Under the pieces are notes generated by a model. The model did no database searches. It was not told the DNA's origin and saw nothing but the letters and a program-made list of their open reading frames with translations. Below are positions 3,366 to 33,623 of a DNA stretch of 33,623 nucleotides, piece by piece; within the stretch, counting starts at the first letter, position 1, and each line of letters begins with the position of its first letter. The stretch comes from a virus. The DNA is taken from positions 1-33,623 of IMG/VR virus record IMGVR_UViG_3300017917_003842; one strand, 5' to 3'. A program made the position numbers and the translations under genes.

Positions 3366-6300
3366 ATGAACAAGATAAAAATAGCCATAGTCGATGTAAT
3401 TGGATTGCCTTACGATGGAAACACCCTTTGGAAAAAAGGTATTGGGGGCAGTGAAAGCAGTATTATCAGCGTAGCACGAGAACTTACAAAGTTAGGATTC
3501 TCTGTTACTGTATTCAATGATAATAACAAAGAAGGAGCCCAAGAGGGCGTATATGATGGTGTCGAGTACTGCGAGATAAAACGTCTTGCAGAAAAAGAAT
3601 ACGGCTTTGACATTGTTATCAGTCAAAGAACTGTGGTCCCATTCACTCCTCCACATTTATACGATCAGGTCAAACAACCTCCTCCTAGAGACCACGATAT
3701 CAATGTTTTTAGACAGTTACAACGACCCGGACAGTTAAAAATATTATGGTTGCAAGATACATTCTGCTGGGGTGACCATATCCTAGAAGCACTGGTCACT
3801 GAAGGGTATATAGATGAATTATTTGTTCTTAGCGACTGGCATTTTGCTTACACCACACATAGTTCACACGGTCCCCGCAGAAATGTAGAAGTGTTAAAAA
3901 ATCGCATATTTTTGACAAGAAATGCCATGAATAGGTGGATAGATTGGGTAGATATTAGACAAAAAGACCCCAATTTGTTCGTTTATAATGCCAGTGTGAC
4001 TAAGGGCATGGTTCCATTGTTAGAACGTATATGGCCAAGGTTAAAATCTCAGTTGCCTAATGCTAGGTTAAAAATTATAGGCGGATACTATCAATTCCCT
4101 AATGAGCCGTTAAATGAACAGGGGCATACTGTATTGCGTTTACAAAAAATGTATGAAGGAGATCCCAGCGTTGAGTTTACAGGAATAATTACACAGCCTG
4201 AGATAGCCAAAGTAATAGCCAACGCTACATACATGATCTATCCTGGAGCATTTCCTGAAACCAGCGGCATTGCTACTTTAGAAGCTATAAATTATAACAC
4301 CCCTGTTTTTGGAACTAGGTTCGGCGCCATGGAAGAAACAGCCACCGAGGCTGCTAGTTACATGATTGACTATGCCATAGAACCCAACAGTTTATTCCCA
4401 ATGATAAACTCAGATGATCAAGTCGATAGATTTATCAACATGGTCTTACGTGCAGTTCATAATCCTTATTTGCATCAGCAGAAACAATATGCCTGTAATG
4501 CAGTTAAAGATGTTAGTACCTGGGATACTGTGGCATTACAATGGAAACAACACTTCTATCATAAGCTAGGAATAAAATTAGATCAAGAAGAACTTGACAG
4601 AGTGCAATGGATTAATTACAGGGTGCATAAAGTATTTGGTCGTAGGATCAGTAATACTGAAGAAATTATAGTTCCTAAGGTTACTGCTCCTGTATATAAA
4701 GAAACTAACAAATTTAATCTAGCCATTGTCGATATTCCCGGTATGAGCTACGATGGATCTACATTAGATAGACGAGGTCTTGGCGGCAGTGAAAGTGCAG
4801 TTATATTAGTAGCCAAAGAACTTGTAAAGCTAGGAATTAATGTTACGGTGTTTAATGGGTGTAACGAAGATGACAGTTCTCCGGGTACTTATGACGGTGT
4901 AATTTATAGACCAATAACAGATATCGAACACGATCCTTGCAAATTTGATGTAGTTATAAGTTCAAGAACTGTAATGCCCTTTGTCACAGAACAATTCTAT
5001 GGTCTAGAACTGAATACGATTAGAAAGTATCCTTACCAGATGTTCAAGCGTTTGCGAGAAAACGCTCGCTGGAAAGTGTTTTGGATGCATGATACTTTTA
5101 GCTGGGGCGATGACGCTATAGAAGATCTAGTAGTAACAGGTGCAGTTAATGAGATTTGGTGTCTCAGCGATTTTCATTCTATGTATGTAATGAATTGTAA
5201 CCATGGTAAGCCTAGAAACTATGAAGTGCTAAGAAGGCACATGTGGATTACAAGAAATGGTCTAAGAAAGTACTTTGACAAAGTAGATTTAGATAAAAAA
5301 GATCCTAATTTATTTTTCTTTAACGCCAACATGAGCAAAGGATTAAATTCTTTGATACACACCGTGTGGCCTCGTGTCAAAGAACAAATACCTCAGGCTA
5401 GACTAAAGATTATTGGCGGCTTTTATAAACTCGGAAATGCTTTTGGTGAAGTGCATGATCAAGAACGTAGGTTTAAAGAATTAGTAGGTGATGCAATCAA
5501 TGACCCAAGCATAGAATTCACTGGAGTAATTAGTCAGCAGGCAGTAGCAGAAGTCTGTGCAGAAGCTAGTTATTTTATCTATCCTGCAGAACTGCCAGAA
5601 ACTTACGGTATTAGTTGTTTAGAAAGTCTGTATGCTAACACTCCATTGATAACCTGTAGATTTGGTGCATTAGAAGAAACAGCTACAGAAAATAGTTATA
5701 TGATAGATTATGCTATCATACCTAATGGTCTTTATCCGCAGATAAATGCAGAACAACAAGCTGACAAATTTGTTAAACTAGTTGTTGACGTGTTTAGAAA
5801 CAAAAAAGAACATAGGCGCAGACAAAAAGAATTAGATGAAATTAAAGATCTAGCAGGTTGGGATGTAACTGCCTTAGAATGGAAAAATCATTTGAATTCG
5901 AAACTAGGACTCTATACACAGCGAGGTGAGTTCCAATTAACTAATAATTATACTGCTAGATATAATAAAATATTTGGAAGAAAAATAACAGGTTTAGAAT
6001 TTTGGAATTGCCCTAAGTTATCACCTGAACAAAGAATAGTTGTAATTAGTGCGTTCTGGAATGCAGAACAGTATATAGAACGTTGTATACAAAGCGTGGC
6101 CTGCCAAGACTATGATAATTTTGTACACTACCTGATCGATGATTGCTCTGATGATCAAGGTTATCAACGTGCTAAAGATTGTATTGAACAACTACCTGCA
6201 GAATTACAGAAAAAGTTCATATTGAGAAAAAACAATACTCGTTTAGGCAGTGCTGTAGGAAATCAAGTTACTGTGATCAAAGAACTTGATGACAACGACA

Positions 6301-25852: not shown

Positions 25853-27334
25853 ATGTCAATAACCTTTAGTGATCGATTAATAGCCTATTTGGCTTTGTTA
25901 AGTGGTTTAAGTATTAGTGCTGTAGCTGTATATTATTCAGTTATAGGCCTTACTGCTATATTTGCGGCTGCATTTGTTCCCATTGTTATTATGGGAGTAG
26001 TCTTAGAATTAGGTAAGTTAGTAGCTACTATATGGCTTAAACAAAATTGGCAGATTGCTCCTAAGCTAATTAGGGCTTATCTGTTAGTTGCGGTAACTAT
26101 CTTAATGATAATTACCAGTATGGGTATATTTGGTTATCTATCAAAAGCCCACATGGATCAAGCTGTGCCAACCGGTGACATAGCAGAACGTGTAGCTGTG
26201 ATAGATGAAAAGATTCGGACTCAACGGGAGAACATAGATGCAGCTAAACGTGCTCTTAAACAAATGGATGAATCGGTTGACCAAATCATGGCTCGTAGTT
26301 CAGACGAACGAGGAGCAGAAAAAGCCGCCGCTCTTAGACGAGCACAACAAAAAGAGCGAACAACACTTCAAAATGATATTAGCAAGTCGCAGAGTAATAT
26401 TACTGCCCTTAATGAAGAACGAGCTCCAATCGCCAAAGACCTTAGAAAAATCGAAGCCGAAGTTGGACCAATCAAATACATTGCCGCATTAATTTATGGC
26501 GACGATCCTGATCAAAATCTTTTAGAACGTGCAGTTAGATGGGTCATTATTTTTATTGTTATAATATTTGACCCGCTGGCTGTGGTGTTGTTATTGGCCA
26601 GCCAATACAGTTTTCAATGGTTCCGCACAAAGAGAGAAGAAGATGAGCAAACTCCAGATCCGTATGTTGCAGATGTTGGAGAAAAGCCTACAGCAGAGGA
26701 ACTAATTGATACTGATTCTAATTTAGAAGTACAAAAACAAATCTCAGCTCTGTGGACTGCCATAAAAGAACCGTGCCCGAAATGCGGTACTGTTATGGTC
26801 TACGAATCCGACAAAGGTTTGAATTGTCCAAACAGTGAATGTCCTAAGGAAGATGATGCTGTCAAAGAACCTGTTGAAGTAGAACCGGCCCCACACCATC
26901 CAGATACACATCCATATTTGAGAGAAGGATTTAAATATCCTCCTGGGTGGATGTTTCAACCTCCTGTAGTTGCTACTCCAGAGCCTGTTACCCCAGAAAA
27001 TATCGAAATTACACCTATTGTAGAATCTGAGACTGTAACTACTGAGACTGTTGAGGAGAAGGTAGAAACTCAACCGAAGCGTGCCGAGTTCGATGACCTT
27101 GGCATCGACTGGAACAACTTACCCCCAGATACTGAATACATGGTAGTCAAGGGCGAAAGAATGAATGTCAAAGCCGCTAGAGATTTATACGGTCCTAAAC
27201 ACTTGGTTTCAGAATATGTTCAAAATGAAGAACAGAATCAAAGTGGTACTTGGAACAAAGTAATATCTGCCCAGGAATATAGAAACAAAGCAGAAGAAAA
27301 TGCCACTAAAAATAACTCTAGTAACACCCCCTGA
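25853..27334 (+). CDS. Membrane protein with coiled coil and zinc ribbon
   Basis: A 493-aa protein with three hydrophobic helices in residues ~8-100 (AYLALLSGLSISAVAVYYS, FAAAFVPIVIMGVVLELGKL, LLVAVTILMIITSMGIFGY), a long polar coiled coil at ~110-205 (RTQRENIDAAKRALKQMDES), and a fourth helix (WVIIFIVIIFDPLAVVLLL) near 225-245. A zinc ribbon, CPKCGTVMVYESDKGLNCPN with another CPNSECP pair, follows near 304-325, then a Pro/Glu/Thr-rich tail. It could be an inner-membrane platform for infection or assembly. Its end overlaps the next gene. Confidence 0.7.
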   Translation: MSITFSDRLIAYLALLSGLSISAVAVYYSVIGLTAIFAAAFVPIVIMGVVLELGKLVATIWLKQNWQIAPKLIRAYLLVAVTILMIITSMGIFGYLSKAHMDQAVPTGDIAERVAVIDEKIRTQRENIDAAKRALKQMDESVDQIMARSSDERGAEKAAALRRAQQKERTTLQNDISKSQSNITALNEERAPIAKDLRKIEAEVGPIKYIAALIYGDDPDQNLLERAVRWVIIFIVIIFDPLAVVLLLASQYSFQWFRTKREEDEQTPDPYVADVGEKPTAEELIDTDSNLEVQKQISALWTAIKEPCPKCGTVMVYESDKGLNCPNSECPKEDDAVKEPVEVEPAPHHPDTHPYLREGFKYPPGWMFQPPVVATPEPVTPENIEITPIVESETVTTETVEEKVETQPKRAEFDDLGIDWNNLPPDTEYMVVKGERMNVKAARDLYGPKHLVSEYVQNEEQNQSGTWNKVISAQEYRNKAEENATKNNSSNTP

Positions 27335-32495: not shown

Positions 32496-33191
32496 GTGAA
32501 AACAAAAATCGCCCTTTTTATGCACCATCCCGAGTGCTCAAGGCAATGCGCCTCGGGCATGGTCAAAGCTTTGTCTCCGGATTATGATATCAAATTTTTT
32601 ACAGAAAATGATATTAGTCCGGAGTTTTTTTATGACGTAACCTGTGTAGCTTTTCCCGGAGGAATCGGCGACAGCGAAAGCTTTCATAGGTTTTTTAATA
32701 GAACCAGGTCCAACATCATTGCAGATTTTATCAATCGTGGCGGGCACTATTTAGGTATATGCATGGGTGCATATTGGGCAGGCTGGCATTATTTTGATAT
32801 TCTAGAAGGCTGCGATGCTGTTCAATATATACGCAGACCCAAAACAGATATTGCTAGAAGTTATCATTCAGTGGCCAAAGTTAACTGGCAGGGCAATTCC
32901 GAGAATATGTTTTTCTTTGACGGCTGTGCCATAGTTGGGGACGAAAGCAAGTTTAAAACTGTGGCGCGATACTCAAACGGTGATCCTATGGCTATAATTC
33001 AAAATCGAATAGGAATTATCGGTTGTCATCCAGAAAGTCAAGAATTTTGGTATAAAAGAAACTATCTTAAGCCACACTGGCATCATGGTCGTCATCATAC
33101 TTTATTATTAAATTTTGTCAATGAACTAATTGGTGAAAAAATTATCTTGCAGAACGAAATCAAATTTGATAAGGCTGCAATAAAAATTTAA
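32496..33191 (+). CDS. Class I glutamine amidotransferase-like protein (BPL_N type)
   Basis: A 231-aa protein with the flavodoxin-like GATase fold. FPGGIGDSESFH (53-64) is the oxyanion region, C89 in YLGICMGAYWAG is the nucleophile on its elbow, and H178/E180 in IIGCHPES complete the triad. The layout is close to the biotin-protein-ligase N-terminal (BPL_N) group, whose role is poorly known. The GTG start at 32496 gives the first strand TKIALFMHH needed by the fold, so ATG 32520 is rejected. Substrate unknown. Confidence 0.75.
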   Translation: MKTKIALFMHHPECSRQCASGMVKALSPDYDIKFFTENDISPEFFYDVTCVAFPGGIGDSESFHRFFNRTRSNIIADFINRGGHYLGICMGAYWAGWHYFDILEGCDAVQYIRRPKTDIARSYHSVAKVNWQGNSENMFFFDGCAIVGDESKFKTVARYSNGDPMAIIQNRIGIIGCHPESQEFWYKRNYLKPHWHHGRHHTLLLNFVNELIGEKIILQNEIKFDKAAIKI

Positions 33192-33221: not shown

Positions 33222-33250
33222 TTGACAAGATAATTAAATGACTACATAAT
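33222..33250 (+). promoter_or_regulatory. Strong sigma-70 promoter for the right-end RNA
   Basis: A perfect TTGACA at 33222-33227 and CATAAT at 33245-33250 with an optimal 17-bp spacer. It is the best host-type promoter in the window. Predicted start near 33257. No ORF follows. Confidence 0.8.
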
Positions 33251-33256
33251 AAACAC

Positions 33257-33623
33257 ATTGCAAAAATAAGTTTTTAAGGTAAGGTACAGCAACATTCCAA
33301 AACATGGAACTGCTGGGGAGTTGGGTATAGCTGGAGTTCAAAGGTTCGCCGGAGAACAGTGAAGGTGTATACTTGAAGACGAACCAGATATGCGTGTTTC
33401 GATTTTGACGCAGAAAAATACTCAAAGTAGGCAACTTACCTGTTCTTTACTAGGATAGATTCAGCAATCTTAACTTTATGACGAAACCGCTAAAGCAGTA
33501 GAAAGGCCCGTGGAACGGTGAGTAGAAATACTCAGCAGAAATGCCCCTAAGGAACTGACGACTTATGGAAAGACATATATGCGCTGTCGCAGACACAAGG
33601 ACAGCTAGGCTTGGGAGACTGAA
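33257..33623 (+). ncRNA. Large structured non-coding RNA, 3'-truncated by the window
   Basis: About 370 nt after a strong sigma-70 promoter with no credible ORF. Stems read by eye: a long-range helix, AGGTAAG (33277-33283) with CTTACCT (33435-33441), encloses hairpin CAGCA/TGCTG with TTCCA/TGGAA (33287-33315), GGTTCG/CGAACC (33343-33348/33380-33385), and TGCGT/ACGCA near 33391-33412. Further down come AGATT/AATCT near 33447-33460, CCGTGGAACGG near 33508-33518, GAGTA-GAAA-TACTC (33520-33533) with a GNRA-type loop, TAAG/CTTA near 33548-33565 and GCTGTC/GACAGC near 33583-33605. Short stems with A- and GA-rich joints recall the large ornate phage RNAs (GOLLD, ROOL), but I cannot confirm either. 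tmRNA, RNase P and group I intron landmarks are absent. Confidence 0.65.

What the first reader, a model, noticed from the sequence alone, without database searches (positions are those of the whole stretch)
33222..33623. Large, highly structured non-coding RNA behind a near-perfect host promoter
The sequence shows TTGACA-N17-CATAAT followed by about 370 nt with no ORF but many complementary segments, including a 7-bp helix closing over 150 nt (33277-33283 with 33435-33441) and at least seven local hairpins, one with a GAAA loop. It continues past the window. It lacks landmarks of tmRNA, RNase P RNA or group I introns. Large ornate RNAs of unknown function (GOLLD, ROOL) are known from phages, GOLLD notably from freshwater samples. 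This may be a member or a new class.
Basis: partly seen in the sequence, partly recalled or inferred. Interest (0 to 1): 0.88.

Follow-up and report, generated by a model that had tools for sequence, protein, structure and literature searches.

The report
Phage Y-RNA-like array beside Ro60 gene
The end of this phage fragment carries the first part of a row of folded non-coding RNAs that in its relatives sits just in front of a gene for a viral version of Ro60, the protein that in animals and bacteria binds 'Y RNAs', suggesting that many phages carry their own, largely undescribed Y-RNA system.

Summary
In detail: a sigma-70 promoter (33222-33250) followed by non-coding, structured RNA cut off by the contig end. 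It is not GOLLD, ROOL, tmRNA, RNase P or a group I intron. It is the start of a tandem array. Each unit has a 7-bp closing stem, a 3-nt linker, CAGCAA, a variable insert, the second stem strand and GUU. Window unit 1 is 33277-33441. Unit 2 starts at 33452; its homologues hold a covarying pseudoknot. In relatives the array lies directly 5' of a gene of Ro60 fold (Foldseek: TROVE domain, phage phiLo Ro60, human Ro60). 62 of 63 distinct Ro leaders hold units, against 0.41 expected, and the last unit usually ends 10-25 nt before the start codon. Sister units enclose a circularly permuted tRNA and match Rfam YrlA (bacterial Y RNA) full length, but below its cutoff. Minimal units resemble Dictyostelium class I RNAs, also below cutoff. 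The same units flank Ro genes in Mycobacterium, Listeria, Campylobacter, Salmonella and Aeromonas phages. Best reading: Ro60-associated (Y) RNAs, co-transcribed with and probably autoregulating the phage Ro60 gene. RNA-Ro binding is inferred, not shown.

The parts
33222..33250 (+). sigma-70-type promoter TTGACA-N17-CATAAT driving the array
   Evidence: 11/12 consensus; TTGACA-N16-18-TATAAT in front of the same RNA in 29 related loci, some of them duplicate records
33277..33441 (+). unit 1 of the array, complete: AGGTAAG-GTA-CAGCAA ... CTTACCT, followed by GTT (33442-33444)
   Evidence: module scan; homologues by nhmmer; covarying closing stem
33277..33283 (+). closing stem P1, 5' strand, unit 1
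   Evidence: 100% paired in 26 sequences, 4 pairs with changes on both sides
33435..33441 (+). closing stem P1, 3' strand, unit 1
   Evidence: as above
33284..33292 (+). 3-nt linker GTA plus invariant CAGCAA core
   Evidence: CAGCAA invariant in alignment A3; linker of exactly 3 nt and CAGCAA strongly preferred over controls
33391..33412 (+). internal hairpin TGCGT-GTTTCGATTTTG-ACGCA, type B element of unit 1
   Evidence: read from sequence; position; GTTTCGA element conserved in relatives
33452..33623 (+). unit 2, 5' part (type C insert), truncated by the contig end; P1 5' strand AGGATAG 33452-33458, linker ATT, CAGCAA 33462-33467
   Evidence: pattern hit; profile match of window 33447-33623 to the type C family E=1.3e-22; alignment A4
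33520..33533 (+). GAGTA-GAAA-TACTC hairpin within unit 2
   Evidence: position; hairpin present in most relatives
33609..33619 (+). 5' strands of the two helices of the unit 2 pseudoknot (GCTTGG, GAGAC); their partners lie beyond the window
   Evidence: helices covary in relatives
32496..33191 (+). gene upstream of the array: amidotransferase-like / BPL_N protein; not part of the RNA
   Evidence: Pfam BPL_N E=1.4e-12

Best explanation
The feature is the 5' part of a phage-encoded array of Ro60-associated (Y-like) RNAs, transcribed from a host-type promoter into the phage's own Ro60 gene, which should lie just past the window. Each unit is closed by a 7-bp stem next to CAGCAA. I infer that this stem and core form the Ro60-docking platform. 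The variable insert is the effector part: a pseudoknotted domain, GUUUCGA-type hairpins, a permuted tRNA, or an anticodon-stem-loop-like hairpin in other units. Units are probably released as separate RNAs that tether or gate the phage Ro60 ring, as bacterial YrlA does for Rsr. The last unit abuts the ribosome-binding site, so Ro60 binding there would also repress its own translation. Shown here: units, stems, covariation, linkage to a Ro60-fold gene, tRNA-like sister units. Inferred: protein binding, processing, tethering, autoregulation.
For: Unit statistics: 121 distinct perfect units against a mean of 1.15 for 20 permuted-motif controls; a linker of 3 nt gives 170 against 7-22 for other lengths. 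P1 covariation: A3; A4. Linkage: every array homologue from the Ro-independent ClpX and Zn-ribbon searches has the Ro gene directly 3' where the contig reaches that far. 62 of 63 distinct Ro leaders have a unit within 1 kb 5', against a mean of 0.41 and maximum of 3 for 59 control motifs. The last unit ends 10-25 nt before the start codon in 55 of 63. Protein: phrog_850 'RNA-binding protein' E=2e-149 and DUF2828/DUF7788; AF2 model pLDDT 82.6; best PDB matches are a TROVE domain, Ro60 of Thermus phage phiLo and human Ro60. Y-RNA architecture: sister units enclose a permuted tRNA and match RF02553 YrlA over 1-114: LeBron 39.8 bits E=1.5e-7, L022 E=2.4e-5, phiN3 E=3.3e-4, L197 E=1.1e-3. Same units beside Ro in Listeria, Campylobacter, Mycobacterium, Salmonella and Aeromonas phages and in bacterial or archaeal bins, 21 against 0.84 expected. 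Published: YrlA basal stem binds Rsr and its tRNA-like part binds PNPase (PMC8394870).
Against: No binding, expression or processing data. The window's own Ro gene is not visible because the contig ends. All YrlA matches are below Rfam's cutoff (69 bits), and the window's two units have no tRNA-like insert. No unit was found within 4-6 kb of Ro in phages BF, OC, XbC2 and Ci1. The protein does not reach Pfam TROVE at E 0.01, and the fold match is moderate (TM 0.52-0.61). Position at the ribosome-binding site would also suit a purely cis-acting leader.
Confidence: 0.8

Rival explanations
1. The array is only a cis-acting leader: a structured 5' UTR that controls translation of the Ro60 gene (autoregulation or ligand sensing), with no separate trans-acting RNAs.
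For: Co-directional with Ro. The last unit's P1 ends 10-25 nt before the start codon in 55 of 63 leaders. No terminator between array and gene was seen in the sequences read.
Against: Units also occur 3' of Ro (LeBron, Felix O1; L138-L141) and inside tRNA clusters (L012, L019, L022), where they cannot act as its leader. Permuted-tRNA inserts fit a Y RNA better than a leader.
Confidence: 0.15
2. The units are tRNA or anticodon decoys that protect against host anticodon nucleases, independent of Ro60.
For: 16 of 40 minimal inserts hold a canonical anticodon stem-loop against 0.97 in shuffles. Some inserts are permuted tRNAs. Units often lie in tRNA clusters.
Against: The very tight linkage to the Ro gene. 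The large type A, B and C inserts, including the window's, show no obvious element of that kind.
Confidence: 0.1
3. It is a member of the GOLLD or ROOL class of ornate large RNAs.
For: Phage origin, size, a closing stem over a long interval.
Against: No Rfam match to GOLLD or ROOL even at E up to 10. Modular tandem build and Ro linkage.
Confidence: 0.01

Closest known systems
YrlA, bacterial Y RNA (Rfam RF02553)
   Same: Basal stem formed by the two ends, internal loop, insert that is a permuted tRNA with closed acceptor arm (in sister units), gene next to a Ro60 orthologue
   Different: CAGCAA core absent from the RF02553 consensus; tandem arrays; most inserts are not tRNA-like; scores below the family cutoff; associated Ro is the DUF2828/DUF7788 type
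Mycobacteriophage Y RNAs (Chen et al. 2014, as cited in PMC12282133)
   Same: Phage-encoded Y RNAs are an existing idea; LeBron has a YrlA-like unit beside Ro
   Different: The shared CAGCAA core, the arrays, the minimal and type A/B/C units and the spread over many phage lineages were not found described in the papers searched
Dictyostelium class I RNAs (Rfam RF01414; PMC7919456)
   Same: Short covarying stem joining the two ends, UUACAGCAA motif directly 3' of the 5' strand, CUGU end, variable middle, about 60 nt (minimal units)
   Different: Eukaryote, RRM protein Rnp1A binds one; phage linker varies; Rfam scores up to 36.5 against a cutoff of 41.5; the window's units are much longer
Abundant ncRNAs of Listeria phage CKA15 (PMC12282133)
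   Same: Same genomic neighbourhood, upstream of the Ro60-like gene CKA15_055; the authors suggested Y RNAs
   Different: The most abundant stretch (26,236-26,727) has no CAGC in the homologous A511 stretch; the CAGCAA units lie between it and the Ro gene
GOLLD and ROOL
   Same: Large structured phage RNAs
   Different: No sequence or structure match; different architecture

Membership tests
YrlA / bacterial Y RNA | Matches RF02553 above its gathering score (69 bits) | tested here: not met
   Window: no match. Best sister unit 39.8 bits
YrlA / bacterial Y RNA | 5' and 3' ends pair in a basal stem | tested here: met
   P1 100% paired with double changes
YrlA / bacterial Y RNA | Gene adjacent to a Ro60 orthologue | tested here: met
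   In relatives, protein of Ro60 fold; for the window itself the contig ends first
YrlA / bacterial Y RNA | tRNA-like effector domain | tested here: not met
   Not in the window's two units (no tRNA or YrlA hit); met in sister units
YrlA / bacterial Y RNA | Binds the Ro60 protein | not testable with these tools
   Needs biochemistry
Dictyostelium class I RNA | Matches RF01414 above its gathering score (41.5 bits) | tested here: not met
   Best phage units 36.5 and 35.4 bits; archaeal-bin unit 32.4 bits
Dictyostelium class I RNA | Terminal stem with compensatory changes, adjacent 11-nt motif, CUGU end | tested here: inconclusive
   Stem and CUGU(U) met; only the CAGCAA part of the motif is constant, linker varies
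GOLLD / ROOL / tmRNA / RNase P / group I intron | Match to the Rfam models | tested here: not met
   (E up to 10)
Ro60 / TROVE protein (neighbouring gene) | Ro60 fold: HEAT-like ring plus vWA domain | tested here: met
   Foldseek best hits 9kop, 9l5y, 9nfa, E 1e-8 to 5e-6
Ro60 / TROVE protein (neighbouring gene) | Pfam TROVE sequence match | tested here: not met
   Only DUF7788 and DUF2828 at E up to 0.01

The most novel reading that the evidence does not exclude
The phage units and the class I RNAs of social amoebae, so far described as unique to dictyostelids, belong to one RNA superfamily defined by a terminal stem next to UUACAGCAA and a CUGU end. Its members are Ro60-type (Y) RNAs. Phages with Ro60 carry and diversify them as tRNA-mimicking scaffolds.
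Probability: 0.3. Interest if true: 0.95.

Novelty: new variant of a known kind. Interest (0 to 1): 0.8.

Why it matters
Ro60-like genes occur in 682 of 50,697 phage records, but their RNA partners are almost undescribed. This work gives a simple signature for those partners, shows them in lineages with tractable lab phages, and exposes new inserts (a pseudoknotted domain, anticodon-loop mimics, permuted tRNAs). That makes the question of what phage Ro60 does directly testable. It also offers a concrete hypothesis for the origin and protein partner of the orphan class I RNAs of Dictyostelium.

Tried and rejected
Rfam on the window: nothing at cutoff; Atu_L1 at E 0.15 is noise. blastn of the RNA against 50,697 phage records: none. 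An exact 22-mer in IMG/VR: none. The first neighbour search (amidotransferase gene) gave loci without the RNA. Single-sequence AF2 of the Ro protein was poor (pLDDT 43) and was replaced by an alignment-based model. Riboswitch or group I/II intron readings were considered: no Rfam match, and units also lie 3' of Ro and within tRNA clusters. An exoribonuclease-like gene (PF16473, 29938-30468) upstream was considered as a Y-RNA-tethered partner, but it accompanies ClpX in 79 loci, of which only 15 show Ro, so no specific link. T4 and T5 tRNA regions (both phages taken as Ro-less; no Ro-like gene annotated in the stretches fetched) hold no credible unit: T4 two hits that by coordinates fall in protein-coding genes, T5 none. 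T4 species 1/2 RNAs and the T5 stable RNAs printed lack CAGCAA.

Full report
What is in the window. The window is a complete 33,623-nt IMG/VR virus record from a phage with a ribonucleotide reductase and virion genes. After an amidotransferase-like gene (32496-33191) there is a TTGACA-N17-CATAAT promoter at 33222-33250 (11/12). About 370 nt without a + strand ORF of 60 aa follow, up to the contig end. Rfam has nothing at its cutoffs, and at E up to 10 only a noise match. Folding energy is not exceptional (z -0.22; z -1.12 for the exact unit), so structure had to be shown by comparison.

Homologues. Searches with two neighbouring genes, chosen without regard to the RNA, brought in loci in which nhmmer finds the RNA with E down to 3e-40. 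In every one whose contig reaches far enough, the RNA is followed directly by one gene, MNAFV..GASRGKD..WARDVRGGAGER... The gene family was then used to fetch 80 more loci.

The unit. The leaders show a repeated design: U-rich stretch, 7-nt stem strand (often AGG....), 3-nt linker, CAGCAA, variable insert, complementary strand, then GUU or another G-initial tail. Perfect units number 121 against a mean of 1.15 for 20 permutations of CAGCAA, and a linker of exactly 3 nt gives 170 against 7-22 for other lengths. Window unit 1 is 33277-33441; unit 2 begins at 33452 and is cut off.

Covariation. Homologues of unit 1 were picked by nhmmer, not by pairing. In A3 (26 sequences) the stem is 100% paired, with 29 double-change cells against 10.3 in shuffles (0/500); slid versions fall to 10-46%. 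For unit 2 (A4, 25 sequences) the stem is 100% paired and two further helices form an H-type pseudoknot (order a-b-a'-b'). One of these is 100% paired with 30 double-change cells, the other is 77% paired in this alignment, with a visible register shift in some rows. The whole structure gives 68 double-change cells against 20.8 (0/500). Caveat: the 3' ends of the A4 rows were cut at TCCTG-like strings, which biases its P1 but not the pseudoknot; the pseudoknot columns were chosen by eye on one row.

The partner gene. The protein is phrog_850 'RNA-binding protein' (E 2e-149), Pfam DUF2828 plus DUF7788, not Pfam TROVE by sequence. An AF2 model from 39 relatives (pLDDT 82.6) finds as its three best PDB matches a TROVE domain, Ro60 of Thermus phage phiLo and human Ro60. 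The family occurs in 682 phage records and is annotated there as RNA-binding, Ro-like or Ro sixty-related.

Linkage of unit and gene. Of 63 distinct Ro leaders, 62 have at least one unit within 1 kb; 59 control motifs average 0.41 leaders. In 55 of 63 the last unit ends 10-25 nt before the start codon. In cultured phages, units lie beside Ro in A511 (Listeria, 3), CPX (Campylobacter, 2), LeBron (Mycobacterium, 3), Felix O1 (4), LAh_8 (Aeromonas, 7), BUCT-ZZ01, S13, phiN3 and KVP40, but not within 4-6 kb in BF, OC, XbC2 or Ci1; DLP_6 has a CAGCAC version at the ribosome-binding site. Ro loci in bacterial and archaeal bins, which may themselves be phage contigs, hold 21 against 0.84 expected. 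Eight of nine unit-bearing contigs tested carry the gene; the ninth is a 21-kb fragment.

What kind of RNA. Several sister units enclose a circularly permuted tRNA and match RF02553 YrlA over its full length: LeBron 39.8 bits E 1.5e-7, L022 31.9 bits E 2.4e-5, phiN3 35.9 bits, L197 34.1 bits. All are under the 69-bit cutoff. In YrlA the basal stem holds Rsr and the tRNA-like part binds PNPase (PMC8394870), and Y RNAs sit with rsr in RNA-repair operons (PMC7790460). Minimal units match RF01414, Dictyostelium class I RNA, at up to 36.5 bits (cutoff 41.5). That class is defined by a short covarying end stem, CCUUACAGCAA and a CUGU end, and is described as absent outside dictyostelids (PMC7919456). 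In 16 of 40 minimal inserts there is a canonical anticodon stem-loop against 0.97 in shuffles.

Interpretation. I take the units as Ro60-associated RNAs. P1 plus CAGCAA as the docking platform is inferred from its constancy and its linkage to Ro. The inserts as effector or tRNA-mimic parts is inferred by analogy with YrlA. The position of the last unit on the ribosome-binding site suggests autoregulation. In Listeria phage CKA15 the Ro-like protein was found in purified particles and abundant ncRNAs lie nearby, which the authors suggested might be Y RNAs (PMC12282133). The most abundant of those (26,236-26,727) has no CAGC in the homologous A511 stretch; the CAGCAA units lie between it and Ro.

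Limits. No expression or binding data; the window lacks the 3' part and the Ro gene; several matches are below curated cutoffs; literature search covers open-access papers only.

Noticed in passing
L012 7896-8274 and L022 1-448 (also L198 1-137, partial): Phage contigs appear to encode tmRNA (Rfam beta_tmRNA 134.9 and 114.4 bits; permuted tmRNA model also matches).
   Followed up: no
L212 about 4526-5017 (Listeria phage A511; CKA15 26236-26727): A separate ~490-nt non-coding stretch, reported as the most abundant phage transcript in CKA15, contains no CAGC; it was not searched further and may be another large RNA.
   Followed up: partly
Listeria phage CKA15_055 (OR088597 23695-25215): The phage Ro60-like protein was detected in purified virions by mass spectrometry (PMC12282133), so Ro60 and perhaps its RNAs may be packaged.
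   Followed up: no
L069 15285-15328, L082 6743-6797, L074 14452-14471: Stretches matching the array's promoter region occur elsewhere in the relatives, in L069 just at the start of the exonuclease-like gene; probably a shared phage promoter type.
   Followed up: no
minimal units, e.g. L022 13422-13476, L159 891-951, L205 3593 and 3904: Inserts look like anticodon stem-loops with anticodons UUU, UGU, CAU and others; may be decoys for anticodon nucleases.
   Followed up: partly
L212 8851-12563; L200 2319-3578; L214 4294-5559; L205 9069: RNA ligases (RtcB-like and others) are encoded near the Ro gene in several phages, as in bacterial RNA-repair operons.
   Followed up: no
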